Part shown: in pieces, positions 24,540 to 52,935 of the stretch | Layout: every line of letters starts with the position of its first letter | Position numbering within the stretch: the first letter of the stretch is position 1 | NCBI GenBank assembly: GCA_910589415.1 | Contig: OU342633.1 | Coordinates: forward strand, 13,182,858-13,246,857 | Reading direction: 5' to 3' | Length of the DNA: 64,000 nt | From: Malachius bipustulatus | Taxonomy: Eukaryota; Arthropoda; Insecta; Coleoptera; Melyridae | The notes under the pieces: model-generated | Seen by the model: the letters and a program-made list of their open reading frames with translations, nothing else | Database searches by the model: none | What the model was told of the DNA's origin: nothing | Position numbers and translations under genes: made by a program

Positions 24540-24800
24540 ACGCTGATTCCCTCCTTGTTTCTTCTAATTCCCTTCTTGGTATTTCTAATTCCTCACTAAT
24601 TCCCACATTTTTTGCCAATTCCCCGTATTTTACAAGTAATTCCCAATAATTCCTCTAATTCCCCTAATTCCCCACTAATTCCCCTAATTCCCCACTAATT
24701 CCCCACTAATTCCCTACTAATTCCTGAAGTGTGTACACTAAAATTCCCCTGCGGTTTACCCCTCGTAGGCAACCCTGCAGCAGTTTCCAAAGTCTGCTGG
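24540..24800 (-). repeat. Right arm of the distant inverted repeat with AATTCCC minisatellite
   Basis: Contains irregular CTAATTCCCC units (24600-24725), then the inverse of the left arm: CTGCGGTTTACCCCTC, TAGGCAACCCTGCAG, GTTTCCAAAG. Unlike the left arm it lacks the 160-bp insert between the last two blocks. The arm cuts into the end of a hAT transposase frame. Confidence 0.6.
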
Positions 24801-28813: not shown

Positions 28814-29349
28814 ACGTTTTCACTCTTGAATCCTGAACAGTAAATGGGAAGGTCATTATGGAGATGAGCGGCATTGGTATAGGGCGATTTGGCTTATGCT
28901 ATCGGATAGCTTGCGTCTCTAGGAGTATCAAGGTACCATTGAATTTTTGCGCCGGCAAGTAATAGTCGAGAAATAAGGCCTCAAAGTTTCATCCTTGCCC
29001 TAATACGCGTATATTCGTACATAATACGTTCGAACAGGAAGCCGCACTCCGTCGGACACACGACTCTGAGTGCGTGCTTCCCGTCGAGCGTATATGTACA
29101 AACACACGTAATGACACTTTAAGGCCTTATTTCTCGACTATTACTTGCCGGCGCAAAAATTCAATGGTACCTTGATACTCCTAGAGACACAAGCTATCCG
29201 ATAGTATAAGCCATTTCGCCCTATATCCATGCCGCTCATCTCCATAATTACCAATGGGAATGTTTTCATGTACTCCCTTTCCCAAATTATATCAGGCAAT
29301 AAGTTTTTCGCTGTAAGTTCATTTTTTTCTTCATTTTCGAACGGTGATG
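28814..29349 (-). pseudogene. V0: truncated viral module, interrupted by a MITE
   Basis: Only the part that codes for the N-terminal region of the RdRp fragment is present (about 125 bp without the insertion). It is cut at 28814 against the LINE fragment and split by the 402-bp MITE at 28851-29252. It marks the left edge of the array. Confidence 0.75.
28851..29252. mobile_element. hAT-type MITE with 8-bp target duplication
   Basis: 402 bp with arms of about 150 bp. The ends are GGTCATTATGGAGATGAGCG on the left and the inverse of GGTAATTATGGAGATGAGCG on the right. Flanks are AATGGGAA at 28843-28850 and AATGGGAA at 29253-29260, an exact 8-bp duplication. All eight full V copies show the empty site with a single AATGGGAA, which proves the insertion and its borders. 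An 8-bp duplication fits hAT. The interior has GC-rich loops (AAGCCGCACTCCGTCGGAC) and no gene. Confidence 0.9.
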
Positions 29350-29836
29350 AACAAATGGTTTCTGGCTAAATGGGCTAGCAATGTCCGATGGCAAAAAATA
29401 ATAGTCAGAGTAAAGGGTGAAAATAATGAATTAAAAAAATTTCTTCACAGCAGCTCACCAAGTCTCTCTGCTGAGATGAAAATTACAAATTGCTAACGGG
29501 TTTGGGTTTGGGTCATTGAAATATGGATTGGAAAAAGGTATAATTTTTTATTGATTTATATATTCACACATCTTCCTTTATAGATCCAACTCCTCCAGGA
29601 CAAAAGCGCTACTAATGGTAGGTGCTGACTAAGTTTTACAAGAGGCTCATTCAGAGCCACTAGCCTATAGGCTAGATTAACAAATGGTCTCTGGCTAAAT
29701 GGGCAAGCAATGTCCGATGGCAAAAAAAAAATAGCTAGAGTAAAGGGTGAAAATAATGAATTAAAAAATCTCTTCACAGCAGCTCACCAAGTCTCTCTGT
29801 CAGCAAACGGGTTTGGGTCATTAAAATATGGATTGG
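29350..29836. repeat. S-A-S satellite run between V0 and V1 (1 A module)
   Basis: One A module near 29.57 kb. The second S is the short form (159 bp), lacking the GCTGAGATGAAAATTACAAG part. A minus frame of 73 codons across S and A recurs in several monomers and is a product of the repeat. Confidence 0.85.
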
Positions 29837-30867
29837 GGTGCACATCAATCTGACGATCAGTAGCGACAAGCGAGTCGTCCCCAAGTACTAAATGATCACA
29901 TACATTGACTCCCATCTTTCGTACGCAATACTGGGTAACAATCCAGTTTACGATGGAATCAATGAGCTGGGTAAAGTAACTTCCGCTTGCAACTCCTTTT
30001 CTTTTTCGATACCTTTCACCGTTGCACATGCGAATCGGAGTACAAATGAAATACTCAACGATCTTCTTCCACGCTCTGTACAACTTGTGGGTATCAGGAA
30101 TACCATAATCTTGATAGGCCGTCAGGTCAATATTACTGAGTAGCACGTCAAAAGCTACCCGCACCAGCCAAGCTGGATGATGGTTTTATCAAAACGACTC
30201 TAGTCAGAAGACATGAAACTTTTATATTTCGCAAAACGCAGAAATATCTTCCTACATCCTCTGCGTGCAGTCTCAAATCCGTAAGCAAGTGGCGTATTAG
30301 CTTCCTTGAATGCTTGAATTGGTGGTAACGCAAAACATGCTTCCTGAAATGAAACAGTGCAGGGGTATCCCCACACCGCACGAACTTTTTTCTGTCCCTT
30401 CTCGACGAGATGTGGTCGTACGTATGCTGCGCAGTCTGGTAGACTGACTCGTTTTCCTTCTTTTATCAAGTGTCAAACCGTTCGAATGCTCCTAAATGTG
30501 TCCGGGTCCATAGCAACTTCCTTCTTACTTGAATAGCCATACTCCTTCCATGGTAGACCTGGTGATGAACCCCAATTATCGAGAGTCTTAAGGGGAAGGT
30601 CATTAATTTCAACTGGATCAGTAGCTGTCCAATTATGCAAACGAGACTTGGGTCCAAGTCGGCCCTAATTTATAATTTACATCTTCTGTTATAAACAGAT
30701 CAAAAAATCCCAGGGAGTTTTATCAATCATGTTAAAAATTGACGTTTTCACTCTTGAATCCTGAACAGTAAATGGGAATGTTTTCATGTACTCCCTTTCC
30801 CTAATTATATCAGGCAATAAGTTTTTCGCTGTAAGTTCATTTTTTTCTTCATTTTCGAACGGTGATG
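29837..30867 (-). pseudogene. V1: endogenous partitivirus-like RdRp fragment
   Basis: Viral RNA-dependent RNA polymerase sequence, minus strand, without N- and C-termini. Recognisable in order: a SSPGLPW block near 30560, KVRAVWGYP (30370-30400), the motif A core SRFDKTI (near 30190), motif B SGSYFTQLIDSIVN (about 29945-29990) and motif C LGDDS (29868-29885). This set and spacing are those of partitivirus-like RdRps. Breaks: TGA at 30473-30475, TAG at 30200-30202 just before motif A, a frameshift just after motif A at about 30170, and several stops in the part above 30660. The homology ends soon after the GDD, where satellite S begins. No capsid gene or second genome segment is present. The longer 63- and 83-codon frames in other phases are shadows. 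Type: motif B starts GVASG. Confidence 0.85.
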
Positions 30868-31355
30868 AACAAATGGTTTCTGGCTAAATGGGCTAGCAAT
30901 GTCCGATGGCAAAAAAAATAGCTAGAGTAAAGGGTGAAAATAATGAATTAAAAAAATTTCTTCACAGCAGCTCACCAAGTCTCTCTGCTGAGATGAAAAT
31001 TACAAGATTGCTAACGGGTTTGGGTTTGGGTCATTGAAATATGGATTGGAAAAAGGTATAATTTTTTATTGATTTATATATTCACACATCTTCCTTTATA
31101 GATCCAACTCCTCCAGGACAAAAGCGCTACTAATGGTAGGTGCTGACTAAGTTTTACAAGAGGCTCATTCAGAGCCACTAGCCTATAGGCTAGATTAACA
31201 AATGGTCTCTGGCTAAATGGGCAAGCAATGTCCGATGGCAAAAAAAAAAATAGCTAGAGTAAAGGGTGAAAATAATGAATTAAAAAATCTCTTCACAGCA
31301 GCTCACCAAGTCTCTCTGTCAGCAAACGGGTTTGGGTCATTAAAATATGGATTGG
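30868..31355. repeat. S-A-S satellite run between V1 and V2 (1 A module)
   Basis: S 30868-31049, A 31050-31196, short S 31197-31355. These borders were used to define the modules. Confidence 0.85.
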
Positions 31356-32386
31356 GGTGCACATCAATCTGACGATCAGTAGCGACAAGCGAGTCGTCCC
31401 CAAGTACTAAATGATCACATACATTGACTCCCATCTTTCGTACGCAATACTGGGTAACAATCCAGTTTACGATGGAATCAATGAGCTGGGTAAAGTAACT
31501 TCCGCTTGCAACTCCTTTTCTTTTTCGATACCTTTCACCGTTGCACATGCGAATCGGAGTACAAATGAAATACTCAACGATCTTCTTCCACGCTCTGTAC
31601 AACTTGTGGGTATCAGGAATACCATAATCTTGATAGGCCGTCAGGTCAATATTACTGAGTAGCACGTCAAAAGCTACCCGCACCAGCCAAGCTGGATGAT
31701 GGTTTTATCAAAACGACTCTAGTCAGAAGACATGAAACTTTTATATTTCGCAAAACGCAGAAATATCTTCCTACATCCTCCGCGTGCAGTCTCAAATCCG
31801 TAAGCAAGTGGCGTATTAGCTTCCTTGAATGCTTGAATTGGTGGTAACGCAAAACATGCTTCCTGAAATGAAACAGTGCAGGGGTATCCCCACACCGCAC
31901 GAACTTTTTTCTGTCCCTTCTCGACGAGATGTGGTCGTACGTATGCTGCGCAGTCTGGTAGACTGACTCGTTTTCCTTCTTTTATCAAGTGTCAAACCGT
32001 TCGAATGCTCCTAAATGTGTCCGGGTCCATAGCAACTTCCTTCTTACTTGAATAGCCATACTCCTTCCATGGTAGACCTGGTGATGAACCCCAATTATCG
32101 AGAGTCTTAAGGGGAAGGTCATTAATTTCAACTGGATCAGTAGCTGTCCAATTATGCAAACGAGACTTGGGTCCAAGTCGGCCCTAATTTATAATTTACA
32201 TCTTCTGTTATAAACAGATCAAAAAATCCCAGGGAGTTTTATCAATCATGTTAAAAATTGACGTTTTCACTCTTGAATCCTGAACAGTAAATGGGAATGT
32301 TTTCATGTACTCCCTTTCCCTAATTATATCAGGCAATAAGTTTTTCGCTGTAAGTTCATTTTTTTCTTCATTTTCGAACGGTGATG
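31356..32386 (-). pseudogene. V2: endogenous partitivirus-like RdRp fragment
   Basis: Same extent and same breaks as V1 (TGA near 31992, TAG at 31719-31721, frameshift after motif A). It belongs to the GVASG type with V1 and V5. One difference from V1 is CCTCCGCGTG instead of CCTCTGCGTG, changing one residue of the AR(R/G)GCRK segment. Confidence 0.85.
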
Positions 32387-33878
32387 AACAAATGGTTTCT
32401 GGCTAAATGGGCTAGCAATGTCCGATGGCAAAAAAAATAGCTAGAGTAAAGGGTGAAAATAATGAATTAAAAAAATTTCTTCACAGCAGCTCACCAAGTC
32501 TCTCTGCTGAGATGAAAATTACAAGATTGCTAACGGGTTTGGGTTTGGGTCATTGAAATATGGATTGGAAAAAGATATAATTTTTTATTGATATATATAT
32601 ATATATTCACACATCTTCCTTTATAGATCCAACTCCTCCAGGACAAAAGCGCTACTAATAGTAGGTGCTGACTAAGTTTTACAAGAGGCTCATTCAGAGC
32701 CACTAGCCTATAGGCTAGATTAACAAATGGTCTCTGGCTAAATGGGCAAGCAATGTCCGATGGCAAAAAAATAGCTAGAGTAAAGGGTGAAAATAATGAA
32801 TTAAAAAAATTTATTCACAGCAGCTCACCAAGTCTCTCTGCTGAGATGAAAATTACAAATTGCTAACGGGTTTGGGTTTGGGTCATTGAAATATGGATTG
32901 GAAAAAGATATAATTTTTTATTGATTTATATATTCACACATCTTCCTTTATAGATCCAACTCCTCCAGGACAAAAGCGCTACTAATAGTAGGTGCTGACT
33001 AAGTTTTACAAGAGGCTCATTCAGAGCCGCTAGCCTATAGGCTAGATTAACAAATGGTCTCTGGCTAAATGGGCAAGCAATGTCCGATGGCAAAAAAAAT
33101 AGCTAGAGTAAAGGGTGAAAATAATGAATTAAAAAAATTTCTTCACAGCAGCTCACCAAGTCTCTCTGCTGAGATGAAAATTACAAGATTGCTAACGGGT
33201 TTGGGTTTGGGTCATTGAAATATGGATTGGAAAAAGATAATTTTTTATTGATTTATATATTCACACATCTTCCTTTATAGATCCAACTCCTCCAGGACAA
33301 AGCGCTACTAATAGTAGGTGCTGACTAACTTTTACAAGAGGCTCATTCAGAGCCACTAGCCTATAAGCTAGATTAACAAATGGTCTCTGGCTAAATGGGC
33401 AAGCAATGTCCGATGGCAAAAAAATAGCTAGAGTAAAGGGTGAAAATAATGAATTAAAAAAATTTCTTCACAGCAGCTCACCAAGTCTCTCTGCTGAGAT
33501 GAAAATTACAAGATTGCTAACGGGTTTGGGTTTGGGTCATTGAAATATGGATTGGAAAAAGATATAATTTTTTATTGATTTATATATTCACACATCTTCC
33601 TTTATAGATCCAACTCCTCCAGGACAAAAGCGCTACTAATAGTAGGTGCTGACTAAGTTTTACAAGAGGCTCATTCAGAGCCACTAGCCTATAGGCTAGA
33701 TTAACAAATGGTCTCTGGCTAAATGGGCAAGCAATGTCCGATGGCAAAAAATAATAGCTAGAGTAAAGGGTGAAAATAATGAATTAAAAAATCTCTTCAC
33801 AGCAGCTCACCAAGTCTCTCTGCTGAGATAAAAAATACAAGATTGCTAACGGGTTTGGGTCATTAAAATATGGATTGG
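32387..33878. repeat. Satellite run between V2 and V3 (4 A modules)
   Basis: Four S-A monomers of 325-330 bp. The first A has an expanded TATATATATA stretch (32590). The third carries three linked markers: ACAAAGCGC (one A lost), CTAACTTTTAC, and CCTATAAGCT. These markers tag the block copied to 36.1 and 41.3 kb. Confidence 0.85.
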
Positions 33879-34909
33879 GGTGCACATCAATCTGACGATC
33901 AGTAGCGACAAGCGAGTCGTCCCCAAGTACTAAATGATCACATACATTGACTCCCATCTTTCGTACGCAATACTGGGTAACAATCCAGTTTACGATGGAA
34001 TCAATGAGCTGGGTAAAGTAACTTCCGCTTGTAACTCCTTTTCTTTTTCGAGACATTTCACCGTTGCACATGCGAATCGGAGTACAAATGAAATACTCAA
34101 CGATCTTCTTCCACGCTCTGTACAACTTGTGGGTATCAGGAATACCATAATCTTGATAGGCCGTCAGGTCAATATTACTGAGTAGCACGTCAAAAGCTAC
34201 CCGCACCAGCCAAGCTGGATGATGGTTTTATCAAAACGACTCTAGTCAGAAGACATGAAACTTTTATATTTCGCAAAACGCAGAAATATCTTCCTACATC
34301 CTCTGCGTGCAGTCTCAAATCCGTAAGCAAGTGGCGTATTAGCTTCCTTGAATGCTTGAATTGGTGGTAACGCAAAACATGCTTCCTGAAATGAAACAGT
34401 GCAGGGGTATCCCCACACCGCACGAACTTTTTTCTGTCCCTTCTCGACGAGATGTGGTCGTACGTATGCTGCGCAGTCTGGTAGACTGACTCGTTTTCCT
34501 TCTTTTATCAAGTGTCAAACCGTTCGAATGCTCCTAAATGTGTCCGGGTCCATAGCAACTTCCTTCTTACTTGAATAGCCATACTCCTTCCATGGTAGAC
34601 CTGGTGATGAACCCCAATTATCGAGAGTCTTAAGGGGAAGGTCATTAATTTCAACTGGATCAGTAGCTGTCCAATTATGCAAACGAGACTTGGGTCCAAG
34701 TCGGCCCTAATTTATAATTTACATCTTCTGTTATAAACAGATCAAAAAATCCCAGGGAGTTTTATCAATCATGTTAAAAATTGACGTTTTCACTCTTGAA
34801 TCCTGAACAGTAAATGGGAATGTTTTCATGTACTCCCTTTCCCTAATTATATCAGGCAATAAGTTTTTCGCTGTAAGTTCATTTTTTTCTTCATTTTCGA
34901 ACGGTGATG
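33879..34909 (-). pseudogene. V3: endogenous partitivirus-like RdRp fragment
   Basis: Same breaks as V1 (TGA near 34515, TAG at 34242-34244, frameshift after motif A). It belongs to a second type with V4 and V6: CNGEMSRKRKGVTSG before motif B. The GDD is kept. The run-on past the RdRp into S encodes a different tail because the long S form follows. Confidence 0.85.
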
Positions 34910-36723
34910 AACAAATGGTTTCTGGCTAAATGGGCTAGCAATGTCCGATGGCAAAAAAAATAGCTAGAGTAAAGGGTGAAAATAATGAATTAAAAAAATT
35001 TCTTCACAGCAGCTCACCAAGTCTCTCTGCTGAGATGAAAATTACAAATTGCTAACGGGTTTGGGTTTGGGTCATTGAAATATGAATTGGAAAAAGATAT
35101 AATTTTTTATTGATTTATATATTCACACATCTTCCTTTATAGATCCAACTCCTCCAGGACAAAAGCGCTACTAATAGTAGGTGCTGACTAAGTTTTACAA
35201 GAGGCTCATTCAGAGCCGCTAGCCTAATGCTAGATTAACAAATGGTCTCTGGCTAAATGGGCAAGCAATGTCCGATGGCAAAAAAAATAGCTAGAGTAAA
35301 GGGTGAAAATAATGAATTAAAAAAATTTCTTCACAGCAGCTCACCAAGTCTCTCTGCTGAGATGAAAATTACAAATTGCTAACGGGTTTGGGTTTGGGTC
35401 ATTGAAATATGAATTGGAAAAAGATATAATTTTTTATTGATTTATATATTCACACATCTTCCTTTATAGATCCAACTCCTCCAGGACAAAAGCGCTACTA
35501 ATAGTAGGTGCTGACTAAGTTTTACAAGAGGCTCATTCAGAGCCGCTAGCCTATAGGCTAGATTAACAAATGGTCTCTGGCTAAATGGGCAAGCAATGTC
35601 CGATGGCAAAAAAAATAGCTAGAGTAAAGGGTGAAAATAATGAATTAAAAAAATTTCTTCACAGCAGCTCACCAAGTCTCTCTGCTGAGATGAAAATTAC
35701 AAGATTGCTAACGGGTTTGGGTTTGGGTCATTGAAATATGAATTGGAAAAAGATATAATTTTTTATTGATTAATATATTCACACATCTTCCTTTATAGAT
35801 CCAACTCCTCCAGGACAAAAGCGCTACTAATAGTAGGTGCTGACTAAGTTTTACAAGAGGCTCATTCAGAGCCGCTAGCCTATAGGCTAGATTAACAAAT
35901 GGTCTCTGGCTAAATGGGCAAGCAATGTCCGATGGCAAAAAAAATAGCTAGAGTAAAGGGTGAAAATAATGAATTAAAAAAATTTCTTCACAGCAGCTCA
36001 CCAAGTCTCTCTGCTGAGATGAAAATTACAAGATTGCTAACGGGTTTGGGTTTGGGTCATTGAAATATGGATTGGAAAAAGATAATTTTTTATTGATTTA
36101 TATATTCACACATCTTCCTTTATAGATCCAACTCCTCCAGGACAAAGCGCTACTAATAGTAGGTGCTGACTAACTTTTACAAGAGGCTCATTCAGAGCCA
36201 CTAGCCTATAAGCTAGATTAACAAATGGTCTCTGGCTAAATGGGCAAGCAATGTCCGATGGCAAAAAAATAGCTAGAGTAAAGGGTGAAAATAATGAATT
36301 AAAAAAATTTCTTCACAGCAGCTCACCAAGTCTCTCTGCTGAGATGAAAATTACAAGATTGCTAACGGGTTTGGGTTTGGGTCATTGAAATATGGATTGG
36401 AAAAAGATATAATTTTTTATTGATTTATATATTCACACATCTTCCTTTATAGATCCAACTCCTCCAGGACAAAAGCGCTACTAATAGTAGGTGCTGACTA
36501 AGTTTTACAAGAGGCTCATTCAGAGCCACTAGCCTATAGGCTAGATTAACAAATGGTCTCTGGCTAAATGGGCAAGCAATGTCCGATGGCAAAAAATAAT
36601 AGCTAGAGTAAAGGGTGAAAATAATGAATTAAAAAATCTCTTCACAGCAGCTCACCAAGTCTCTCTGCTGAGATAAAAAATACAAGATTGCTAACGGGTT
36701 TGGGTCATTAAAATATGGATTGG
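34910..36723. repeat. Satellite run between V3 and V4 (5 A modules)
   Basis: Five S-A monomers. The first three have TATGAATTGG instead of TATGGATTGG in S. The second A-bearing unit has a deletion in CCTATAGGCT. The fourth carries the ACAAAGCGC/CTAAC/CCTATAAGCT marker set, 2,845 bp to the right of its first occurrence. Confidence 0.85.
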
Positions 36724-37754
36724 GGTGCACATCAATCTGACGATCAGTAGCGACAAGCGAGTCGTCCCCAAGTACTAAATGATCACATACATTGACTCCC
36801 ATCTTTCGTACGCAATACTGGGTAACAATCCAGTTTACAATGGAATCAATGAGCTGGGTAAAGTAACTTCCGCTTGTAACTCCTTTTCTTTTTCGAGACA
36901 TTTCACCGTTGCACATGCGAATCGGAGTACAAATGAAATACTCAACGATCTTCTTCCACGCTCTGTACAACTTGTGGGTATCAGGAATACCATAATCTTG
37001 ATAGGCCGTCAGGTCAATATTACTGAGTAGCACGTCAAAAGCTACCCGCACCAGCCAAGCTGGATGATGGTTTTATCAAAACGACTCTAGTCAGAAGACA
37101 TGAAACTTTTATATTTCGCAAAACGCAGAAATATCTTCCTACATCCTCTGCGTGCAGTCTCAAATCCGTAAGCAAGTGGCGTATTAGCTTCCTTGAATGC
37201 TTGAATTGGTGGTAACGCAAAACATGCTTCCTGAAATGAAACAGTGCAGGGGTATCCCCACACCGCACGAACTTTTTTCTGTCCCTTCTCGACGAGATGT
37301 GGTCGTACGTATGCTGCGCAGTCTGGTAGACTGACTCGTTTTCCTTCTTTTATCAAGTGTCAAACCGTTCGAATGCTCCTAAATGTGTCCGGGTCCATAG
37401 CAACTTCCTTCTTACTTGAATAGCCATACTCCTTCCATGGTAGACCTGGTGATGAACCCCAATTATCGAGAGTCTTAAGGGGAAGGTCATTAATTTCAAC
37501 TGGATCAGTAGCTGTCCAATTATGCAAACGAGACTTGGGTCCAAGTCGGCCCTTATTTATAATTTACATCTTCTGTTATAAACAGATCAAAAAATCCCAG
37601 GGAGTTTTATCAATCATGTTAAAAATTGACGTTTTCACTCTTGAATCCTGAACAGTAAATGGGAATGTTTTCATGTACTCCCTTTCCCAAATTATATCAG
37701 GCAATAAGTTTTTCGCTTTAAGTTCATTTTTTTCTTCATTTTCGAACGGTGATG
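36724..37754 (-). pseudogene. V4: endogenous partitivirus-like RdRp fragment
   Basis: Type GVTSG with EMS, like V3. TGA near 37360, TAG at 37087-37089. Lies exactly 2,845 bp from V3 and 5,239 bp from V6 in matching positions. Its right part reads CCCAAATTATATC and CGCTTTAAG, which it shares with V6. Confidence 0.85.
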
Positions 37755-39442
37755 AACAAATGGTTTCTGGCTAAATGGGCTAGCAATGTCCGATGGCAAG
37801 AAATAATAGTCAGAGTAAAGGGTGAAAATAATGAATTAAAAAAATTTCTTCACAGCAGCTCACCAAGTCTCTCTGCTGAGATGAAAATTACAAATTGCTA
37901 ACGGGTTTGGGTTTGGGTCATTGAAATATGGATTGGAAAAAGATATAATTTTTTATTGATTTATACAGGGTATCCCATAATATGTGGGCAATCTCCCGGA
38001 TTTGGGTAAATTTCGTAAAAATAAATGAAAAAATAGCTATAAAATTAATTCCTCAGAGACACCCCTACAAAGATATTAGCTGTTGAAGTTGAGTGTTGAA
38101 AATAAATTTTTTGCAATAACTTTTTTATTTCTTGACCGATTTTGATAATTTTTGGTTTTATTTTGTATTATTTTGGACTGTTTAGAATAGTGTTTCATAA
38201 TCTTTGGTAGCACATACATAGACCTCGGGATGGCATAACCCCTCATTCACTTGAAAGAAAACAATAAAAATAATAATTTTACAGTTTTTTAAGGTTAATT
38301 TTCTTTTTATTTGACATTTTTTACATAAAAAATGTCTCTTTATTTATTTCGATAGAGCGAACCGTTATCGAGATAAACGTCCTTCTAATAGGTGATGCGC
38401 CACAGGAACTTTTTAAATTTCAAGTAAATTTTAACAAGATGGCTGACCTTTGACAATAAATTGAGCAGGAAACAAAACAATAACTTAATTACATACACGT
38501 CAAATAGTGTCGAAGATTTCGTTTCATGCAGATTCAATTCTAACTGATTTTAAAATGACTTACACAAACGCTGAATACGCAGAAAATCAGTTAGAATTGA
38601 ATCTGCATGAAATTAAATCTTTGACAGTGACGTGTATTTAATTGAGTTATTGTTTTGTTTCCTGCTCAATTTACTGTCAAAGGTCAGCCATCTTGTTAAA
38701 ATTTACTTGAAATTTAAAAAGTTCCTGTGGCGCATCACCTATTAGAAGGACGTTTATCTCGATAACGGTTCGCTCTATCGAAATAAATAAAGATACATTT
38801 TTTATGTAGAAAATGTCAAATAAAAAGAAAATTAACCTTAAAAAACTATAAAATTATTATTTTAATTGTTTTCTTTCAAGTGAATGAGGGGATTATGCCA
38901 TCCCGAGGTCTATGTATGTTCTATCAAAGATTATGAAACACTATTCTAAACAGTCCAAAATAATACAAAATAAAACCAAAAATTATCAAAATCGGTCAAG
39001 ATATAAAAAAGTTATTGCAAAAAATTTATTTTCAACCCTCAACTTCAACAGCTAATATCTTTGTAGGGGTCTCTGAGGAATTAATTTTATAGATATTTTT
39101 TCATTTATTTTTACGAAATTTACCCAAATCCGGGAGATTGCCCACATATTATGGGACACCCTGTATATTCACACATCTTCCTTTATAGATCCAACTCCTC
39201 CAGGACAAAAGCGCTACTAATGGTAGGTGCTGACTAAGTTTTACAAGAGGCTCATTCAGAGCCACTAGCCTATAGGCTAGATTAACAAATGGTCTCTGGC
39301 TAAATGGGCAAGCAATGTCCGATGGCAAAAAAAAAAATAGCTAGAGTAAAGGGTGAAAATAATGAATTAAAAAATCTCTTCACAGCAGCTCACCAAGTCT
39401 CTCTGTCAGCAAACGGGTTTGGGTCATTAAAATATGGATTGG
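37755..39442. repeat. S-A-S run between V4 and V5, split by a palindromic MITE
   Basis: One A module, interrupted after GATTTATA by the element at 37966-39163. The second S is the short form, as before V1 and V2. Confidence 0.85.
37966..39163. mobile_element. 1.2-kb near-perfect palindromic MITE (mariner-type, TA target), copy 1
   Basis: Ends CAGGGTATCCCATAAT and ATTATGGGACACCCTG. TA flanks both sides, and the empty monomer has a single TA there. Arms of about 570 bp pair almost fully, leaving a centre of about 40 bp at 38555-38600. In the centre a plus-strand ATG opens a frame reading MTYTNAEYAEN, which resembles the first residues of DUF4817-bearing insect mariner-like transposases. The element thus looks like a double copy of the 5' end of such a transposon. 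No complete gene. Confidence 0.9.
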
Positions 39443-41962: not shown

Positions 41963-42993
41963 GGTGCACATCAATCTGACGATCAGTAGCGACAAGCGAG
42001 TCGTCCCCAAGTACTAAATGATCACATACATTGACTCCCATCTTTCGTACGCAATACTGGGTAACAATCCAGTTTACGATGGAATCAATGAGCTGGGTAA
42101 AGTAACTTCCGCTTGTAACTCCTTTTCTTTTTCGAGACATTTCACCGTTGCACATGCGAATCGGAGTACAAATGAAATACTCAACGATCTTCTTCCACGC
42201 TCTGTACAACTTGTGGGTATCAGGAATACCATAATCTTGATAGGCCGTCAGGTCAATATTACTGAGTAGCACGTCAAAAGCTACCCGCACCAGCCAAGCT
42301 GGATGATGGTTTTATCAAAACGACTCTAGTCAGAAGACATGAAACTTTTATATTTCGCAAAACGCAGAAATATCTTCCTACATCCTCTGCGTGCAGTCTC
42401 AAATCCGTAAGCAAGTGGCGTATTAGCTTCCTTGAATGCTTGAATTGGTGGTAACGCAAAACATGCTTCCTGAAATGAAACAGTGCAGGGGTATCCCCAC
42501 ACCGCACGAACTTTTTTCTGTCCCTTCTCGACGAGATGTGGTCGTACGTATGCTGCGCAGTCTGGTAGACTGACTCGTTTTCCTTCTTTTATCAAGTGTC
42601 AAACCGTTCGAATGCTCCTAAATGTGTCCGGGTCCATAGCAACTTCCTTCTTACTTGAATAGCCATACTCCTTCCATGGTAGACCTGGTGATGAACCCCA
42701 ATTATCGAGAGTCTTAAGGGGAAGGTCATTAATTTCAACTGGATCAGTAGCTGTCCAATTATGCAAACGAGACTTGGGTCCAAGTCGGCCCTTATTTATA
42801 ATTTACATCTTCTGTTATAAACAGATCAAAAAATCCCAGGGAGTTTTATCAATCATGTTAAAAATTGACGTTTTCACTCTTGAATCCTGAACAGTAAATG
42901 GGAATGTTTTCATGTACTCCCTTTCCCAAATTATATCAGGCAATAAGTTTTTCGCTTTAAGTTCATTTTTTTCTTCATTTTCGAACGGTGATG
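41963..42993 (-). pseudogene. V6: endogenous partitivirus-like RdRp fragment
   Basis: Type EMS/GVTSG, nearly identical to V4 and 5,239 bp from it. TGA near 42599, TAG at 42326-42328. Confidence 0.85.
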
Positions 42994-43204
42994 AACAAAT
43001 GGTTTCTGGCTAAATGGGCTAGCAATGTCCGATGGCAAGAAATAATAGTCAGAGTAAAGGGTGAAAATAATGAATTAAAAAAATTTCTTCACAGCAGCTC
43101 ACCAAGTCTCTCTGCTGAGATGAAAATTACAAATTGCTAACGGGTTTGGGTTTGGGTCATTGAAATATGGATTGGAAAAAGATATAATTTTTTATTGATT
43201 TATA

Positions 43205-44404
43205 CAGGGTATCCCATAATATGTGGGCAATCTCCCGGATTTGGGTAAATTTCGTAAAAATAAATGAAAAAATAGCTATAAAATTAATTCCTCAGAGACA
43301 CCCCTACAAAGATATTAGCTGTTGAAGTTGAGTGTTGAAAATAAATTTTTTGCAATAACTTTTTTATTTCTTGACCGATTTTGATAATTTTTGGTTTTAT
43401 TTTGTATTATTTTGGACTGTTTAGAATAGTGTTTCATAATCTTTGGTAGCACATACATAGACCTCGGGATGGCATAACCCCTCATTCACTTGAAAGAAAA
43501 CAATAAAAATAATAATTTTACAGTTTTTTAAGGTTAATTTTCTTTTTATTTGACATTTTTTACATAAAAAATGTCTCTTTATTTATTTCGATAGAGCGAA
43601 CCGTTATCGAGATAAACGTCCTTCTAATAGGTGATGCGCCACAGGAACTTTTTAAATTTCAAGTAAATTTTAACAAGATGGCTGACCTTTGACAATAAAT
43701 TGAGCAGGAAACAAAACAATAACTTAATTACATACACGTCAAATAGTGTCGAAGATTTCGTTTCATGCAGATTCAATTCTAACTGATTTTAAAATGACTT
43801 ACACAAACGCTGAATACGCAGAAAATCAGTTAGAATTGAATCTGCATGAAATTAAATCTTTGACAGTGACGTGTATTTAATTGAGTTATTGTTTTGTTTC
43901 CTGCTCAATTTACTGTCAAAGGTCAGCCATCTTGTTAAAATTTACTTGAAATTTAAAAAGTTCCTGTGGCGCATCACCTATTAGAAGGACGTTTATCTCG
44001 ATAACGGTTCGCTCTATCGAAATAAATAAAGATACATTTTTTATGTAGAAAATGTCAAATAAAAAGAAAATTAACCTTAAAAAACTATAAAATTATTATT
44101 TTAATTGTTTTCTTTCAAGTGAATGAGGGGATTATGCCATCCCGAGGTCTATGTATGTTCTATCAAAGATTATGAAACACTATTCTAAACAGTCCAAAAT
44201 AATACAAAATAAAACCAAAAATTATCAAAATCGGTCAAGATATAAAAAAGTTATTGCAAAAAATTTATTTTCAACCCTCAACTTCAACAGCTAATATCTT
44301 TGTAGGGGTGTCTCTGAGGAATTAATTTTATAGATATTTTTTCATTTATTTTTACGAAATTTACCCAAATCCGGGAGATTGCCCACATATTATGGGACAC
44401 CCTG
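43205..44404. mobile_element. 1.2-kb palindromic MITE, copy 2
   Basis: Almost identical to the copy at 37966-39163 and in the same monomer position, 5,239 bp away. It differs by a 2-bp TG insertion near 44310 (GGGGTGTCTCTGAGG). It was copied with its flanking satellite and did not insert independently. Confidence 0.9.
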
Positions 44405-44734
44405 TATATTCACACATCTTCCTTTATAGATCCAACTCCTCCAGGACAAAAGCGCTACTAATAGTAGGTGCTGACTAAGTTTTACAAGAGGCTCATTCAG
44501 AGCCACTAGCCTATAGGCTAGATTAACAAATGGTCTCTGGCTAAATGGGCAAGCAATGTCCGATGGCAAAAAAATAGCTAGAGTAAAGGGTGAAAATAAT
44601 GAATTAAAAAAATTTCTTCACAGCAGCTCACCAAGTCTCTCTGCTGAGATGAAAATTACAAGATTGCTAACGGGTTTGGGTTTGGGTCATTGAAATATGG
44701 ATTGGAAAAAGATATAATTTTTTATTGATTTATA

Positions 44735-46904
44735 CAGGGTGATTCATGAGTGACCTTACATAGACCAATGGTGATAAGCGGACTTCAAGGCGGGTCGAAA
44801 ACCACAAACGAAATTTTTTTTGTGTGATTGGTTAAGAAGTTACAGGGTGTTTTATGTCTCAGGTACAAAACTTTGATAGGCGATATTTCTGAAACGGCTG
44901 GAGATATTTTGTAGAAATTTACTAGGAATGGTGCATTCCGGAAACTCATCAAAACGGCATTCTGAGTTAATTAAAAATCCAGGACCGGACTTGAAAATTT
45001 TTGCCCCCATGGTCTTTGTTGAAAAAGTTTATTTTCTGACCGTGCTACTGAAAAACTGTCACCGAATTTGAAAAAATAGGAAAAAAGTCTATAGAAATCA
45101 TTCCTCAAATTGAACGGCACACCCAAACCGTCTCGAAAAAAAAATGTCAAAGTAAAACTTCTCAGTAAATTATCGTTTTCGAGCAGACATATTTTACTTA
45201 ATGTTCGTCTGAATTCCTTCAAATTTATTTTTTGACTTGTTTCTGTGGGAAAAATGTCAGTGTAAATTAAATGTTATCAATATTAATGTTATAAACGGTT
45301 CTCAAAATGTCCTTTACCAACTTCAATACATTTCCTGCAGCGTTTCCATAAATTTTGGTTTGCTTTTTGAATTATTTGCCTGTTGTTTCTAATTTCATCA
45401 GCAACTACCAGTATTCGCGTCCTGAGCTCCTCTCTGGTACTTATTTCCGTTTTTTAGACTTTCTGCTTCATATGGCCCCATGGGTAATAGTCTAAAACAG
45501 TGAGGTTGGGGGACCTAGGTGGTCAGGAATGAGGGCCACCGCGCCCGAACCAACGATTGGGGTACTCATTGTGGAGATGCTCTCTGACTTGTCGAGAAAA
45601 ATGCGGTGGTGCTCCATCTTGCTGGAAGGAAAGAGCATGCCTGTTCACGTTCGCCTCTGCAAGCAAGCCGGGCAAAATGACTTGTAGGAAAAGTAAATAA
45701 ATTTCCCCCCTGAGCCGCCCAGCAAAAAATGGGGTCCTATTAGGGTATCATTTGCAATGCCACACTGCACATTTATAGAAAATCTGTTGCGAGTTCTTCT
45801 GAACAACAGAGCGCGGATTTTCATATGCCCATAGGTGGGAGTTTTTTTTATTCGTTACACCATCCCGCGTGAACTGAGCTTCTATCAGTACACAAAATTC
45901 TACGCAGTCCATTCAATGGAACTTCATTGAATGGTTGAAGCCTCTGTACGCTTTGTACGTGACAGGGATGGCATCCGCTCTTCTTTTTTTCAAAGTTCGC
46001 CATACTCTTGATTGAGAAATGCCCAGTGCTTGCCCAATTCTTCGCGTAGTTGTACTTGGATTTACTGTCACCATCTCCACGATGTTTTGATGGCTCAGAT
46101 TTTCCAATTGAGGTTCAGCATTCCTTTGAACTCAGGGAAATATGCCGTGGTTTCGAGAAAATTGGAAAACAGACGCGAAACGTTACATGGGCCGGTGTTC
46201 TTCGATTGTGATCTTCTATGGTATTCTCTCGCAGCTGCTCTTGAATTTCCATTGCAGAAACCATACACAAACATAATGTCTGGTATTCGTTATTAGTGAA
46301 ATGATTTGTGATTATTAGTGAAATCTGAAAATTTTGTAGTTGACACCTGATTTCCCAGTAATAAAGCTTGGCCTTCTGTCAAACATTTTTCCCACAGAAA
46401 CAAGTCAAAAAATTAATTTGAAGGAATTCAGACGAAAATTAAGTAAAGTATGTCTGCTCGAAAACGATAATTTACTGAGAAGTTTTACTTTGACATTTTT
46501 TTTTCGAGACGGTTTGGGTGTGCCGTTCAAATTGAGGAATGATTTCTATAGACTTTTTTCTTATCTTTTCAAATTCGATGACAGTTTTTCAGTAGCACGG
46601 TCAGAAAATAAACTTTTTCAACAAAGACCATGGGGGCAAAAATTTTCAAGTCCGGTCCTGGATTTTTAATTAACTCAGAATGCGGTTTTGATGAGTCTCC
46701 GGAATGCACCATTCCTAGTAAATTTCTACAAAATATCTCCAGCCGTTTCAGAAATATCGCCTATCAAAGTTTTGTACCTGAGACATAAAACTCCCTGTAA
46801 CTTCTTAACCAATCACACAAAAAAATTTCTTTTGTGGTTTTCGACCCGCCTTGAAGCCCGCTTATCACCATTGGTCTATGTAAGGTCACTCATGAATCAC
46901 CCTG
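44735..46904 (-). mobile_element. Mariner-like transposon with about 530-bp terminal inverted repeats
   Basis: Ends CAGGGTGATTCATGAGTGAC and its inverse, flanked by TA on both sides, with the empty satellite site known. The arms run from 44735 to about 45270 and from about 46370, and share CCCCCATGGTCTTTGTTG among other words. The centre holds a broken transposase on the minus strand. The frames in the arms (44971-45222, 46340-46669) are mirror images of each other and not genes. Confidence 0.9.
45300..46140 (-). pseudogene. Mariner-like (DUF4817-type) transposase, broken
   Basis: Minus strand. A helix-turn-helix NPSTTTRRIGQALGISQSRV (about 46010-46075) is followed by linker residues QRLQPFN, then in shifted frames a CTD block with QFTRDGVTN-like residues (first catalytic Asp, about 45860-45890). 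Next are SHLWAYENPRS (about 45800-45830), QQDGAPPHFSRQVREHL (second Asp, about 45580-45640) and PRSPNLTVLDYYPWGHMK (third catalytic residue Asp, about 45470-45520). A C-terminal helix runs to about 45310. At least three frameshifts or stops separate these pieces. The gene is not functional. The family matches the fragment at 63.6-64.0 kb. Confidence 0.8.
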
Positions 46905-47205
46905 TATATTCACACATCTTCCTTTATAGATCCAACTCCTCCAGGACAAAAGCGCTACTAATAGTAGGTGCTGACTAAGTTTTACAAGAGGCTCATTCAG
47001 AGCCACTAGCCTATAGGCTAGATTAACAAATGGTCTTTGGCTAAATGGGCAAGCAATGTCCGATGGCAAAAAAAATAGCTAGAGTAAAGGGTGAAAATAA
47101 TGAATTAAAAAATCTCTTCACAGCAGCTCACCAAGTCTCTCTGCTGAGATGAAAAATACAAGATTGCTAACGGGTTTGGGTTTGGGTCATTAAAATATGG
47201 ATTGG

Positions 47206-48238
47206 GGTGCACATCAATCTGACGATCAGTAGCGACAATCGAGTCGTCCCCAAGTACTAAATGATCACATACATTGACTCCCATCTTTCGTACGCAATAC
47301 TGGGTAACAATCCAGTTTACGATGGAATCAATGAGCTGGGTAAAGTAACTTCCGCTTGTAACTCCTTTTCTTTTTCGATACATTTCACCGTTGCACATGC
47401 GAATCGGAGTACAAATGAAATACTCAACGATCTTCTTCCACGCTCTGTACAACTTGTGGGTATCAGGAATACCATAATCTTGATAGGCCGTCAGGTCAAT
47501 ATTACTGAGTAGCACGTCAAAAGCTACCCGCACCAGCCAAGCTGGATGATGGTTTTATCAAAACGACTCTAGTCAGAAGACATGAAACTTTTATATTTCG
47601 CAAAACGCAGAAATATCTTCCTACATCCTCCGCGTGCAGTCTCAAATCCGTAAGCAAGTGGCGTATTAGCTTCCTTGAATGCTTGAATTGGTGGTAACGC
47701 AAAACATGCTTCCTGAAATGAAACAGTGCAGGGGTATCCCCACACCGCACGAACTTTTTTCTGTCCCTTCTCGACGAGATGTGGTCGTACGTATGCTGCG
47801 CAGTCTGGTAGACTGACTCGTTTTCCTTCTTTTATCAAGTGTCAAACCGTTCGAATGCTCCTAAATGTGTCCGGGTCCATAGCAACTTCCTTCTTACTTG
47901 AATAGCCATACTCCTTCCATGGTAGACCTGGTGATGAACCCCAATTATCGAGAGTCTTAAGGGGAAGGTCATTAATTTCAACTGGATCAGTAGCTGTCCA
48001 ATTATGCAAACGAGACTTGGGTCCAAGTCGGCCCTTATTTATAATTTACATCTTCTGTTATAAACAGATCAAAAAATCCCAGGGAGTTTTATCAATCATG
48101 TTAAAAATTGACGTTTTCACTCTTGAATCCCCTGAACAGTAAATGGGAATGTTTTCATGTACTCCCTTTCCCAAATTATATCAGGCAATAAGTTTTTCGC
48201 TGTAAGTTCATTTTTTTCTTCATTTTCGAACGGTGATG
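47206..48238 (-). pseudogene. V7: endogenous partitivirus-like RdRp fragment
   Basis: Third type, shared with V8: CNGEMYRKRKGVTSG. Shared breaks at about 47842 (TGA) and 47569-47571 (TAG). A 2-bp CC insertion (GAATCCCCTGAAC near 48130) is also shared with V8. The residue after GDDS is I instead of L. Confidence 0.85.
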
Positions 48239-49697
48239 AACAAATGGTTTCTGGCTAAATGGGCTAGCAATGTCCGATGGCAAAAAAAATAGCTAGAGTA
48301 AAGGGTGAAAATAATGAATTAAAAAAATTTCTTCACAGCAGCTCACCAAGTCTCTCTGCTGAGATGAAAATTACAAATTGCTAACGGGTTTGGGTTTGGG
48401 TCATTGAAATATGGATTGGAAAAAGATATAATTTTTTATTGATTTATATATTCACACATCTTCCTTTATAGATCCAACTCCTCCAGGACAAAAGCGCTAC
48501 TAATAGTAGGTGCTGACTAAGTTTTACAAGAGGCTCATTCAGAGCCACTAGCCTATAGGCTAGATTAACAAATGGTCTCTGGCTAAATGGGCAAGCAATG
48601 TCCGATGGCAAAAAAAATAGCTAGAGTAAAGGGTGAAAATAATGAATTAAAAAAATTTCTTCACAGCAGCTCACCAAGTCTCTCTGCTGAGATGAAAATT
48701 ACAAGATTGCTAACGGGTTTGGGTTTGGGTCATTGAAATATGGATTGGAAAAAGATATAATTTTTTATTGATTTATATATTCACATATCTTCCTTTATAG
48801 ATCCAACTCCTCCAGGACAAAAGCGCTACTAATAGTAGGTGCTGACTAAGTTTTACAAGAGGCTCATTCAGAGCCACTAGCCTATAGGCTAGATTAACAA
48901 ATGGTCTCTGGCTAAATGGGCAAGCAATGTCCGATGGCAAAAAAATAGCTAGAGTAAAGGGTGAAAATAATGAATTAAAAAATCTCTTCACAGCAGCTCA
49001 CCAAGTCTCTGCTGAGATGAAAAATACAAGATTGCTAACGGGTTTGGGTTTGGGTCATTGAAATATGGATTGGAAAAAGATATAATTTTTTATTGATATA
49101 TATTCACACATCTTCCTTTATAGATCCAACTCCTCCAGGACAAAAGCGCTACTAATAGTAGGTGCTGACTAAGTTTTACAAGAGGCTCATTCAGAGCCGC
49201 TAGCCTTGGCTAAATGGGCAAGCAATGTCCGATGGCAAAAAATAATAGCTAGAGTAAAGGGTGAAAATAATGAATTAAAAAATCTCTTCACAGCAGCTCA
49301 CCAAGTCTCTCTGCTGAGATGAAAATTACAAATTGCTAACGGGTTTGGGTTTGGGTCATTGAAATATGGATTGGAAAAAGATATAATTTTTTATTGATTT
49401 ATATATTCACACATCTTCCTTTATAGATCCAACTCCTCCAGGACAAAAGCGCTACTAATAGTAGGTGCTGACTAAGTTTTACAAGAGGCTCATTCAGAGC
49501 CGCTAGCCTATAGGCTAGATTAACAAATGGTCTCTGGCTAAATGGGCAAGCAATGTCCGATGGCAAAAAAAATAGCTAGAATAAAGGGTGAAAATAATGA
49601 ATTGAAAAAATTTCTTCACAGCAGCTCACCAAGTCTCTCTGCTGAGATGAAAATTACAAGATTGCTAACGGGTTTGGGTCATTAAAATATGGATTGG
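48239..49697. repeat. Satellite run between V7 and V8 (4 A modules)
   Basis: Four S-A monomers. The third A is fused to S by a deletion (GCCGCTAGCCTTGGCTAAATGG at 49195-49215 lacks the ACAAATGGTCTC part). Confidence 0.85.
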
Positions 49698-50730
49698 GGT
49701 GCACATCAATCTGACGATCAGTAGCGACAAGCGAGTCGTCCCCAAGTACTAAATGATCACATACATTGACTCCCATCTTTCGTACGCAATACTGGGTAAC
49801 AATCCAGTTTAGGATGGAATCAATGAGCTGGGTAAAGTAACTTCCGCTTGTAACTCCTTTTCTTTTTCGATACATTTCACCGTTGCACATGCGAATCGGA
49901 GTACAAATGAAATACTCAACGATCTTCTTCCACGCTCTGTACAACTTGTGGGTATCAGGAATACCATAATCTTGATAGGCCGTCAGGTCAATATTACTGA
50001 GTAGCACGTCAAAAGCTACCCGCACCAGCCAAGCTGGATGATGGTTTTATCAAAACGACTCTAGTCAGAAGACATGAAACTTTTATATTTCGCAAAACGT
50101 AGAAATATCTTCCTACATCCTCCGCGTGCAGTCTCAAATCCGTAAGCAAGTGGCGTATTAGCTTCCTTGAATGCTTGAATTGGTGGTAACGCAAAACATG
50201 CTTCCTGAAATGAAACAGTGCAGGGGTATCCCCACACCGCACGAACTTTTTTCTGTCCATTCTCGACGAGATGTGGTCGTACGTATGCTGCGCAGTCTGG
50301 TAGACTGACTCGTTTTCCTTCTTTTATCAAGTGTCAAACCGTTCGAATGCTCCTAAATGTGTCCGGGTCCATAGCAACTTCCTTCTTACTTGAATAGCCA
50401 TACTCCTTCCATGGTAGACCTGGTGATGAACCCCAATTATCGAGAGTCTTAAGGGGAAGGTCATTAATTTCAACTGGATCAGTAGCTGTCCAATTATGCA
50501 AACGAGACTTGGGTCCAAGTCGGCCCTAATTTATAATTTACATCTTCTGTTATAAACAGATCAAAAAATCCCAGGGAGTTTTATCAATCATGTTAAAAAT
50601 TGACGTTTTCACTCTTGAATCCCCTGAACAGTAAATGGGAATGTTTTCATGTACTCCCTTTCCCAAATTATATCAGGCAATAAGTTTTTCGCTGTAAGTT
50701 CATTTTTTTCTTCATTTTAGAACGGTGATG
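49698..50730 (-). pseudogene. V8: endogenous partitivirus-like RdRp fragment
   Basis: Same type as V7. TGA near 50334, TAG at 50061-50063. Single-base differences change SIVNW to SILNW in motif B and FCVLR to FYVLR near motif A. Another base change removes a shadow Met. Confidence 0.85.
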
Positions 50731-52935
50731 AACAAATGGTTTCTGGCTAAATGGGCTAGCAATGTCCGATGGCAAAAAAAATAGCTAGAGTAAAGGGTGA
50801 AAATAATGAATTAAAAAAATTTCTTCACAGCAGCTCACCAAGTCTCTCTGCTGAGATGAAAATTACAAGATTGCTAACGGGTTTGGGTTTGGGTCATTGA
50901 AATATTGATTGGAAAAAGATATAATTTTTTATTGATTTATATATTCACACATCTTCCTTTATAGATCCAACTCCTCCAGGACAAAAGCGCTACTAATAGT
51001 AGGTGCTGACTAAGTTTTACAAGAGGCTCATTCAGAGCCACTAGCCTATAGGCTAGATTAACAAATGGTCTCTGGCTAAATGGGCAAGCAATGTCCGATG
51101 GCAAAAAATTAGCTATAGTAAAGGGTGAAAATAATGAATTAAAAAAATTTCTTCACAGCAGCTCACCAAGTCTCTCTGCTGAGATGAAAATTACAAGATT
51201 GTTAACGGGTTTGGGTTTGGGTCATTGAAGTATGGATTGGAAAAAGATATAATTTTTTATTGATTTATATATTCACACATCTTCCTTTATAGATCCAACT
51301 CCTCCAGGACAAAAGCGCTACTAATAGTAGGTGCTGACTAAGTTTTACAAGAGGCTCATTCAGAGCCACTAGCCTATAGGCTAGATTAACAAATGGTCTC
51401 TGGCTAAATGGACAAGCAATGTCCGATGGCAAAAAAAAATAGCTAGAGTAAAGGGTGAAAATAATGAATTAAAAAATCTCTTCACAGCAGCTCACCAAGT
51501 CTCTCTGCTGAGATGAAAAATACAAGATTGCTAACGGGTTTGGGTTTGGGTCATTGAAATATGGATTGGAAAAAGATATAATTTTTTATTGATTTATATA
51601 TTCACACATCTTCCTTTATAGATCCAACTCCTCCAGGACAAAAGCGCTACTAATAGTAGGTGCTGACTAAGTTTTACAAGAGGCTCATTCAGAGCCACTA
51701 GCCTATAGGCTAGATTAACAAATGGTCTCTGGCTAAATGGACAAGCAATGTCCGATGGCAAAAAAAATAGCTAGAGTAAAGGGTGAAAATAATGAATTAA
51801 AAAAATTTCTTCACAGCAGCTCACCAAGTCTCTCTGCTGAGATGAAAAATACAAGATTGCTAACGGGTTTGGGTTTGGGTCATTGAAATATGGATTGGAA
51901 AAAGATATAATTTTTTATTGATTTATATATTCACACATCTTCCTTTATAGATCCAACTCCTCCAGGACAAAAGCGCTACTAATAGTAGGTGCTGACTAAG
52001 TTTTACAAGAGGCTCATTCAGAGCCACTAGCCTATAGGCTAGATTAACAAATGGTCTCTGGCTAAATGGGCAAGCAATGTCCGATGGCAAAAAAATAGCT
52101 ATAGTAAAGGGTGAAAATAATGAATTAAAAAAATTTCTTCACAGCAGCTCACCAAGTCTCTCTGCTGAGATGAAAATTACAAGATTGTTAACGGGTTTGG
52201 GTTTGGGTCATTGAAGTATGGATTGGAAAAAGATATAATTTTTTATTGATTTATATATTCACACATCTTCCTTTATAGATCCAACTCCTCCAGTACAAAA
52301 GCGCTACTAATAGTAGGTGCTGACTAAGTTTTACAAGAGGCTCATTCAGAGCCACTAGCCTATAGGCTAGATTAACAAATGGTCTCTGGCTAAATGGACA
52401 AGCAATGTCCGATGGCAAAAAAAATAGCTAGAGTAAAGGGTGAAAATAATGAATTAAAAAAAATTTCTTCACAGCAGCTCACCAAGTCTCTCTGCTGAGA
52501 TGAAAATTACAAGATTGTTGACGGGTTTGGGTTTGGGTCATTGAAGTATGGATTGGAAAAAGATATAATTTTTTATTGATTTATATATTCACACATCTTC
52601 CTTTATAGATCCAACTCCTCCAGGACAAAAGCGCTACTAATAGTAGGTGCTGACTAAGTTTTACAAGAGGCTGCTAGCCAGAGTAAAAAGTGAAAATAAT
52701 GAATTAAAAAATCTCTTCACAGCAGCTCACCAAGCTCCCTGCTGAGGTGAAAGATACATGATTGCTAACGGGTTTGGGCCATTGAAATATGGATTGGAAA
52801 AGGATATAATATTTTATTTATATATTCACACATCTACCTTTATAGATCCAACTCCTCTAGGACAAAAGCGCTACTAATAGTAAGTGCTGACTAAGTTTTA
52901 CAAGAGGCTCATCTAGGACCGCTAGGCTATAGGCT
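50731..52935. repeat. Right-hand satellite run (7 A modules) and array edge
   Basis: Monomers from 51.1 to 52.55 kb show an alternating pattern of variants (TTAGCTATAG, GATTGTTAACGGG, GAAGTATGG), which indicates a two-monomer higher-order repeat. From 52.67 kb the copies lose blocks and diverge (GCTCCCTGCTGAGGTG), and the array stops in TAGGCTAGAAG near 52935. Confidence 0.85.

What the first reader, a model, noticed from the sequence alone, without database searches (positions are those of the whole stretch)
28814..52935. An endogenous partitivirus-like polymerase fragment has become part of a satellite array
Eight full and one cut copy of a 1,031-bp RdRp fragment (motifs A, B and C visible) are interspersed with 29 copies of a 325-330 bp satellite monomer over 24 kb. 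Seen directly: module order, near identity of copies, RdRp motifs. Known: partitivirus-like sequences are found integrated in arthropod genomes. Inferred: amplification of a viral insert as higher-order satellite DNA, which I do not know to be described for this virus group.
Basis: partly seen in the sequence, partly recalled or inferred. Interest (0 to 1): 0.92.

Follow-up and report, generated by a model that had tools for sequence, protein, structure and literature searches.

The report
Virus polymerase fragment in satellite array
A dead piece of an RNA virus's copying enzyme landed once inside a repetitive stretch of a host genome, probably an arthropod's, and now sits there in nine copies, showing that RNA-virus fossils can be multiplied by satellite-DNA turnover.

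Summary
Between 28,810 and 52,938 lie 29 copies of a ~329-bp monomer and eight full plus one cut copy of a 1,029-1,031-bp minus-strand RdRp fragment. Its longest open piece matches Pfam RdRP_1 at 1e-22. In a library of viral structures its best match is Wenling partiti-like virus 2, 61% identical over 112 columns. The frame is broken; all eight full copies share nearly all stops. The copies share both junctions, and diagnostic bases in neighbouring monomers split perfectly: 9 of 9 against 0 of 26 after the fragment, 8 of 8 against 0 of 29 before it. So it inserted once, replacing about 143 bp of one monomer, and spread by block duplication that continued after a transposon landed beside it. 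It is a local array of irregular order, not a regular higher-order repeat. Endogenous partitivirus RdRps in insects are in print (PMC12027680); ten searches showed me no paper on a non-retroviral RNA-virus fragment amplified inside satellite DNA. Most likely it has no function; a small-RNA role is untested. The genome search did not complete, so host, copies elsewhere and assembly are unchecked.

The parts
28810..29345 (-). Cut RdRp copy (28810-28850 and 29253-29345), split by a 402-bp palindromic element (28851-29252); left edge of the array
29837..30865 (-). RdRp fragment copy 1, broken frame; its left half monomer is 29675-29836
31356..32384 (-). RdRp fragment copy 2
33879..34907 (-). RdRp fragment copy 3
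36724..37752 (-). RdRp fragment copy 4
39443..40472 (-). RdRp fragment copy 5 (one extra base just inside the left junction)
41963..42991 (-). RdRp fragment copy 6
47206..48236 (-). RdRp fragment copy 7
49698..50728 (-). RdRp fragment copy 8
29346..52938 (+). 29 monomers of about 329 bp (reference 33045-33373) and 8 half monomers before RdRp copies; last monomer (52675-52938) truncated and more diverged
37966..39163 (.). T1: 1.2-kb palindromic transposon-like insert at a TA (monomer position 212/213) of a monomer that follows an RdRp copy
43205..44404 (.). T1, second copy, carried by duplication of a block of about 4.2 kb
44735..46904 (.). T2: 2.2-kb insert with long inverted ends (446 nt found ungapped) at the same TA of another monomer

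Best explanation
A DNA copy of part of a partiti-like virus RdRp RNA was captured once inside one monomer of an existing tandem array of a host genome (probably an arthropod), replacing about 143 bp of that monomer (positions 187-329). The chimeric monomer then spread within the array by duplication of kilobase blocks (unequal exchange or gene conversion), together with its flanking monomers and later with a transposon that had landed beside it. The polymerase is dead and shows no sign of being kept for a product; it hitchhikes as satellite DNA. Shown: viral affinity, shared junctions, linkage of diagnostic bases, shared lesions, block duplications. Inferred: capture during repair of a DNA break (no target duplication or poly(A) seen), an arthropod host, lack of function.
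For: Pfam RdRP_1 1.1e-22 and 5.1e-4 for two of four pieces, in profile order; named viral relatives at 40-61% identity in the six best-ranked of 238 matches, three of them with E <= 0.001; six database relatives without an informative name at 46-68%. Junctions: 8 of 8 full copies share the left junction (copy 5 has one extra base just inside it) and 9 of 9 copies share the right one (copy 8 has one substitution near it). Diagnostic bases: 9 of 9 monomers after an RdRp copy against 0 of 26 other monomer starts (2 of 29 monomers lack a start and are not counted); 8 of 8 half monomers before an RdRp copy against 0 of 29 monomers. The grouping of RdRp copies (1,2,5; 3,4,6; 7; 8) matches the subtype of the half monomer before them. 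RdRp copies differ by 0.51% on average (28 pairs), full monomers by 1.49% (231 pairs of 22), as expected if the fragment joined an older array. Blocks of 4.0-4.2 kb at two different offsets are 99.4-99.6% identical; one pair carries T1 and an RdRp copy.
Against: Within each class (after an RdRp copy or not) monomers differ by only 1.0-1.1%, so the evidence that the array is older is moderate. The half monomers before RdRp copies differ by 3.2% on average, partly through a rearranged stretch of about 25 bp in three of eight, so conversion has blurred some blocks. The empty site is seen only as the intact monomer, not in another individual or species. Assembly of near-identical repeats was not checked against reads.
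Confidence: 0.82

Rival explanations
1. The array is a small-RNA source: transcription of the plus strand gives RNA antisense to the viral polymerase message, processed into piRNAs or siRNAs against a related virus, and copy number was selected.
For: All nine copies, the cut one included, have one orientation. Mosquito EVEs are enriched in piRNA clusters (138 of 456, PMC7448346, passages), satellite arrays can be major piRNA sources (PMC7919454, passages), and Chaoborus EVEs give abundant piRNAs (PMC8963322, passages).
Against: No expression data here. One orientation is expected from tandem duplication alone. The monomers, in which no viral match was found, were amplified too.
Confidence: 0.1
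2. The viral insert came first and the satellite grew out of its flanks by tandem duplication.
For: The array's left edge lies inside an RdRp copy, and within one class monomers are only about twice as diverse as RdRp copies (1.0-1.1% against 0.51%).
Against: Over all pairs monomers are three times as diverse as RdRp copies (1.49% against 0.51%); the fragment interrupts the monomer and the repeat resumes at position 1, which presupposes a repeat.
Confidence: 0.1
3. Assembly artefact: a collapsed or chained repeat multiplied one insertion on paper.
For: Near-identical repeats of 0.3-5 kb are hard to assemble; several pairs of blocks are over 99% identical, and RdRp copies 2 and 5 differ by a single inserted base. 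No reads are at hand.
Against: No two full copies are identical, transposon-like inserts interrupt the array, spacing is irregular, and both flanks are non-array sequence.
Confidence: 0.06
4. The fragment is a cellular or retroelement polymerase, not viral.
For: None found.
Against: Pfam gives only viral RdRp families for the 133-aa piece (5 families at E <= 1, two above their cut-offs); all 27 PDB matches at E <= 1 are viral RdRps, though weak; the best-ranked structure-library match is a partiti-like virus at 61% identity (that library holds viral proteins only).
Confidence: 0.01

Closest known systems
Endogenous partitivirus RdRp-like genes in insects (PMC12027680, abstract passage and section 2.5 read; PMC6955108, passages)
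   Same: Partitivirus-type RdRp sequence in cellular genomes; 52 cases listed, over half in insects; Machilis has an endogenous partiti-like RdRp.
   Different: No tandem arrays in what I read ('tandem' and 'copies' occur 0 times in the main text of PMC12027680). Here the fragment is a unit of a satellite array.
Jumbled IHHNV (parvovirus, class recalled) element of Penaeus monodon (PMC8982415, passages)
   Different: DNA virus; the repeat unit is viral itself, with inverted fragments; embedding in a host satellite is not described in the passages seen.
Rearranged or duplicated nrEVE clusters of Aedes albopictus (PMC7448346, passages)
   Same: Non-retroviral RNA-virus insertions in clusters with duplication; probe signal at the centromeres.
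   Different: Mostly flavivirus- and rhabdovirus-like insertions less than 10 kb apart; satellite membership not described in the passages seen.
Intragenomically amplified EVEs of vertebrates (PMC11089739, passages)
   Same: One germline insertion gives many EVE copies; circovirus copies in carnivores are linked to LINE1 activity.
   Different: Vertebrates, amplified in association with transposons; no satellite array in the passages seen.
Co-amplified tandem repeats and transposable elements, rye pSc200/pSc250 (PMC4857426, abstract)
   Same: Mobile elements and tandem monomers expand together by recombination.
   Different: Transposons beside arrays in a plant, not a viral fragment inside a monomer.
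Wenling partiti-like virus 2 RdRp (BFVD A0A1L3KLU9)
   Same: 61% identity over 112 columns.
   Different: The library names it as a virus protein; the window holds only a broken fragment in host DNA.

Membership tests
Partitiviridae-like RdRp (PF00680 RdRP_1) | Profile match to viral RdRp with motifs B and C | tested here: met
   PF00680 80.8 bits, cut-off 23.9, profile 240-350; motif labels recalled
Partitiviridae-like RdRp (PF00680 RdRP_1) | Closest named relatives are partiti-like viruses | tested here: met
   Ranks 1, 6 and 13 are named partiti-like; rank 2 is Gremmeniella abietina RNA virus MS1, recalled as a gammapartitivirus; toti-like names follow from rank 8. Only ranks 1-3 have E <= 0.001; TM is low (0.36), so identity carries it
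Partitiviridae-like RdRp (PF00680 RdRP_1) | Place inside one genus by phylogeny | not tested
   Only a broken fragment and six unnamed pieces were at hand
Endogenous viral element | Viral sequence joined to host DNA at defined junctions | tested here: met
   8 of 8 left and 9 of 9 right junctions with the monomer, one small change near each in one copy
Endogenous viral element | Broken reading frame shared by copies | tested here: met
   Nearly all stops shared by 8 of 8 full copies
LINE-mediated (TPRT) insertion | Target-site duplication and poly(A) tail | tested here: not met
   Neither seen at the junctions (read); about 143 bp of monomer replaced; later loss not excluded
Satellite DNA | Head-to-tail tandem array of non-coding monomers | tested here: met
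   29 monomers, periods 327-329; a 75-aa open frame in the monomer has no Pfam match
Satellite DNA | Large heterochromatic, genome-wide arrays | not tested
   Local 24-kb array here; own-genome search unanswered in 13 tries
Higher-order repeat | Regular multi-monomer period | tested here: not met
   Spacing 1,1,4,5,1,4,2,4 monomers; only some blocks recur
piRNA cluster | Small RNAs mapping to the locus | not testable with these tools
   No RNA data

The most novel reading that the evidence does not exclude
A satellite array has become an amplified antiviral memory: turnover of the array multiplies a viral insert in antisense orientation and so raises the dose of small RNAs against a partiti-like virus, with selection on copy number.
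Probability: 0.1. Interest if true: 0.88.

Novelty: new variant of a known kind. Interest (0 to 1): 0.58.

Why it matters
Satellites derived from retrotransposons and rDNA are in print (PMC3648361, PMC2679016, seen in a search listing with abstract starts). Two recent satellite reviews have no word beginning with 'virus' or 'viral' in the main text (PMC12692304, PMC10048060; words such as 'retrovirus' would not be counted). A non-retroviral RNA-virus fragment amplified inside a satellite shows another way, beside association with transposons (PMC11089739, passages), for virus fossils to gain copies. It also warns that EVE copy numbers need not count integrations: nine copies here trace to one. 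If the locus makes small RNAs, copy number could be a heritable dose of antiviral sequence, which a small-RNA library would test directly.

Tried and rejected
Own-genome search (genome search) was sent 13 times in the same form and never answered, so other copies, array size and host are open. Scans of viral contigs with RdRp piece 29787-30185, alignment A1 and RdRp piece 30203-30472 and of genome contigs with A1 matched 0, 124, 27 and 43 pattern stretches, none confirmed as a relative; a monomer pattern had 0 exact matches in viral contigs. A protein search with the 90-aa piece found nothing. Rfam found no family at gathering score in the window; two weak matches to a Pseudomonas sRNA (E 0.8, 19.2 bits against 36) were rejected as chance. 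PDB sequence search gave 27 weak matches (E 0.096 and up), picornavirus 3D and HCV NS5B-type polymerases. A TPRT origin was rejected for lack of a target duplication and poly(A). A single-letter shuffle of the fragment gives an open stretch of its length (116 aa) in 14 of 1000 cases, so openness alone is weak evidence; the profile match carries the claim. The fold of the 133-aa piece is mediocre (pLDDT 72, pTM 0.61) and its matches have low TM, so only their identity was used. The check for array sequence in the rest of the window (no match) was repeated with a positive control and a more sensitive setting: the control was found, and only two T1 matches of 28 and 55 columns at E 0.005 appeared, taken as chance.

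Full report
Observation. A self-comparison and a repeat finder show a tandem array of ~329-bp monomers from 29,346 to 52,938. Interspersed are eight full copies of a 1,029-1,031-bp fragment (starts 29,837; 31,356; 33,879; 36,724; 39,443; 41,963; 47,206; 49,698) and one cut copy at the left edge (28,810-28,850 and 29,253-29,345), split by a 402-bp palindrome. There are 29 monomers: 22 uninterrupted and full, 3 split by transposon-like inserts, 4 truncated. A further 8 half monomers (positions 1-186) stand directly before the full RdRp copies. Between the nine successive RdRp copies lie 1, 1, 4, 5, 1, 4, 2 and 4 monomers, with 7 after the last, so the order is irregular.

What the fragment is. 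On the minus strand the longest open piece (133 aa, 29,787-30,185; its last residues belong to the monomer) matches Pfam RdRP_1 at 1.1e-22. The 90-aa piece before it matches the same profile at an earlier position (5.1e-4, below the curated cut-off); two further pieces match nothing at E <= 1. A protein search with the 133-aa piece found six relatives among eight candidates, all on contigs of 3.1 kb or less and none with an informative name, at 46-68% identity. A model of that piece (pLDDT 72) compared with BFVD ranks Wenling partiti-like virus 2 first (61% identity over 112 columns, E 1.8e-7), Gremmeniella abietina RNA virus MS1 second (43%; a gammapartitivirus as I recall), then an unclassified Riboviria, Netjeret virus, another Riboviria and Vespa velutina associated partiti-like virus 4. 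Three of 238 matches reach E <= 0.001, and toti-like and other RdRps follow from rank 8. TM-scores are low, so this is evidence by sequence identity, not by fold.

State of the gene. The frame carries stops and at least one shift, which falls inside motif A, while motifs B and C remain in an open stretch (motif names recalled). Nearly all stops are common to 8 of 8 full copies; copies 7 and 8 carry two extra bases. The fragment was therefore most likely broken before it was multiplied. It ends shortly after motif C, with no poly(A) at its 3' side.

One insertion. The left junction is shared by 8 of 8 full copies, copy 5 having one extra base just inside it; the right junction is shared by 9 of 9, copy 8 having one substitution near it. 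Compared with an intact monomer, positions 187-329 are missing and the repeat resumes at position 1; no target-site duplication is visible. The neighbouring monomers carry linked diagnostic bases. Three differences near the start of the monomer are found in 9 of 9 monomers after an RdRp copy and in 0 of 26 other starts (18 monomers and 8 half monomers; two of the 29 monomers lack a start). One difference near position 173 is found in 8 of 8 half monomers before an RdRp copy and in 0 of 29 monomers. Independent insertions would not be expected to share these.

Amplification. RdRp copies differ by 0.51% on average (28 pairs, maximum 0.87%), the 22 full monomers by 1.49% (231 pairs). Within each monomer class the value is 1.0-1.1%, so the age difference is moderate. 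The half monomers before RdRp copies differ by 3.2% on average, partly through a rearranged stretch in three of eight. RdRp copies group as 1, 2, 5 / 3, 4, 6 / 7 / 8, and the half monomers before them fall into the same groups. Blocks of 4.0-4.2 kb recur at two different offsets with 99.4-99.6% identity. One pair contains T1, which sits in a monomer bearing the after-RdRp bases. The order is thus most simply: array, RdRp insertion, spread, T1 insertion, further block duplication. T1 and a second insert, T2, sit at the same TA dinucleotide of the monomer and share the end ACAGGGT.

Surroundings. Of ten stretches scanned with Pfam, a piggyBac-type transposase (367-2166, E 2.1e-89) and two DDE_Tnp_4 (Harbinger-type, name recalled) pieces exceed their cut-offs; one of these (52,930-53,328) overlaps the right edge of the array by a few bases. 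A DDE_3 piece (63,601-63,843) and an FWWh match (24,908-25,612) are below cut-off, and five stretches, T2 and a monomer frame among them, match nothing. No monomer, RdRp, T2 or palindrome match was found in the rest of the window; T1 has two marginal ones. The host is probably an arthropod: this is inferred from the transposons and from where partiti-like relatives and their EVEs are known. The own-genome search did not complete (13 calls).

How it most likely works. It is a hitchhiker. A DNA copy of a viral RNA fragment was caught in the array, most simply during repair of a break, and then followed the ordinary turnover of tandem repeats. A small-RNA role is possible because all nine copies lie on one strand and because both EVEs and satellites can feed piRNA pathways (PMC7448346, PMC8963322, PMC7919454, passages). 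Nothing here tests it, and one orientation is expected from tandem duplication.

What is known. Partitivirus RdRp-like sequences in insects are documented (PMC12027680, section 2.5 read: 52 sequences, over half in insects; PMC6955108, passages). Repeated EVE units exist for a shrimp DNA virus (PMC8982415, passages), clustered and duplicated nrEVEs in Aedes (PMC7448346, passages), and transposon-associated EVE amplification in vertebrates (PMC11089739, passages). Passages of PMC10235124 and PMC6938034 gave no counterpart. Ten searches of the open-licence library listed no paper that I could recognise, from titles, abstract starts and the passages read, as describing a non-retroviral RNA-virus fragment inside satellite DNA. 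Two of these lists were capped (25 of 255 shown, 20 of 67), and subscription journals are largely not held, so novelty is provisional. I rate it a new variant of a known kind.

Noticed in passing
367-2166 (-): 600-aa open reading frame of a piggyBac-type transposase (DDE_Tnp_1_7, E 2.1e-89); further broken piggyBac-like pieces at about 3112-4848 (judged by eye, not scanned).
   Followed up: partly
37966-39163, 43205-44404, 44735-46904: Two different palindromic or long-inverted-repeat inserts with the same end (ACAGGGT) hit the same TA dinucleotide in different monomers: a possible insertion hotspot.
   Followed up: partly
28851-29252: 402-bp palindromic element in the leftmost RdRp copy, flanked by what looks like a 7-8-bp target duplication (AATGGGA).
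   Followed up: partly
33045-33373 (monomer end): A perfect 16-base palindrome CTAGCCTATAGGCTAG closes the monomer; 22 exact copies in the array. Its role is unknown.
   Followed up: no
5711-6523 (-): 271-aa open frame with no Pfam match.
   Followed up: no
8872-8976 and 24637-24724: Two short arrays of a TAATTCCCC-type repeat, about 16 kb apart.
   Followed up: no
12-18 kb: Several inverted pairs of 139-197 nt (for example 14960-15156 and 17096-17292, 92% complementary).
   Followed up: no
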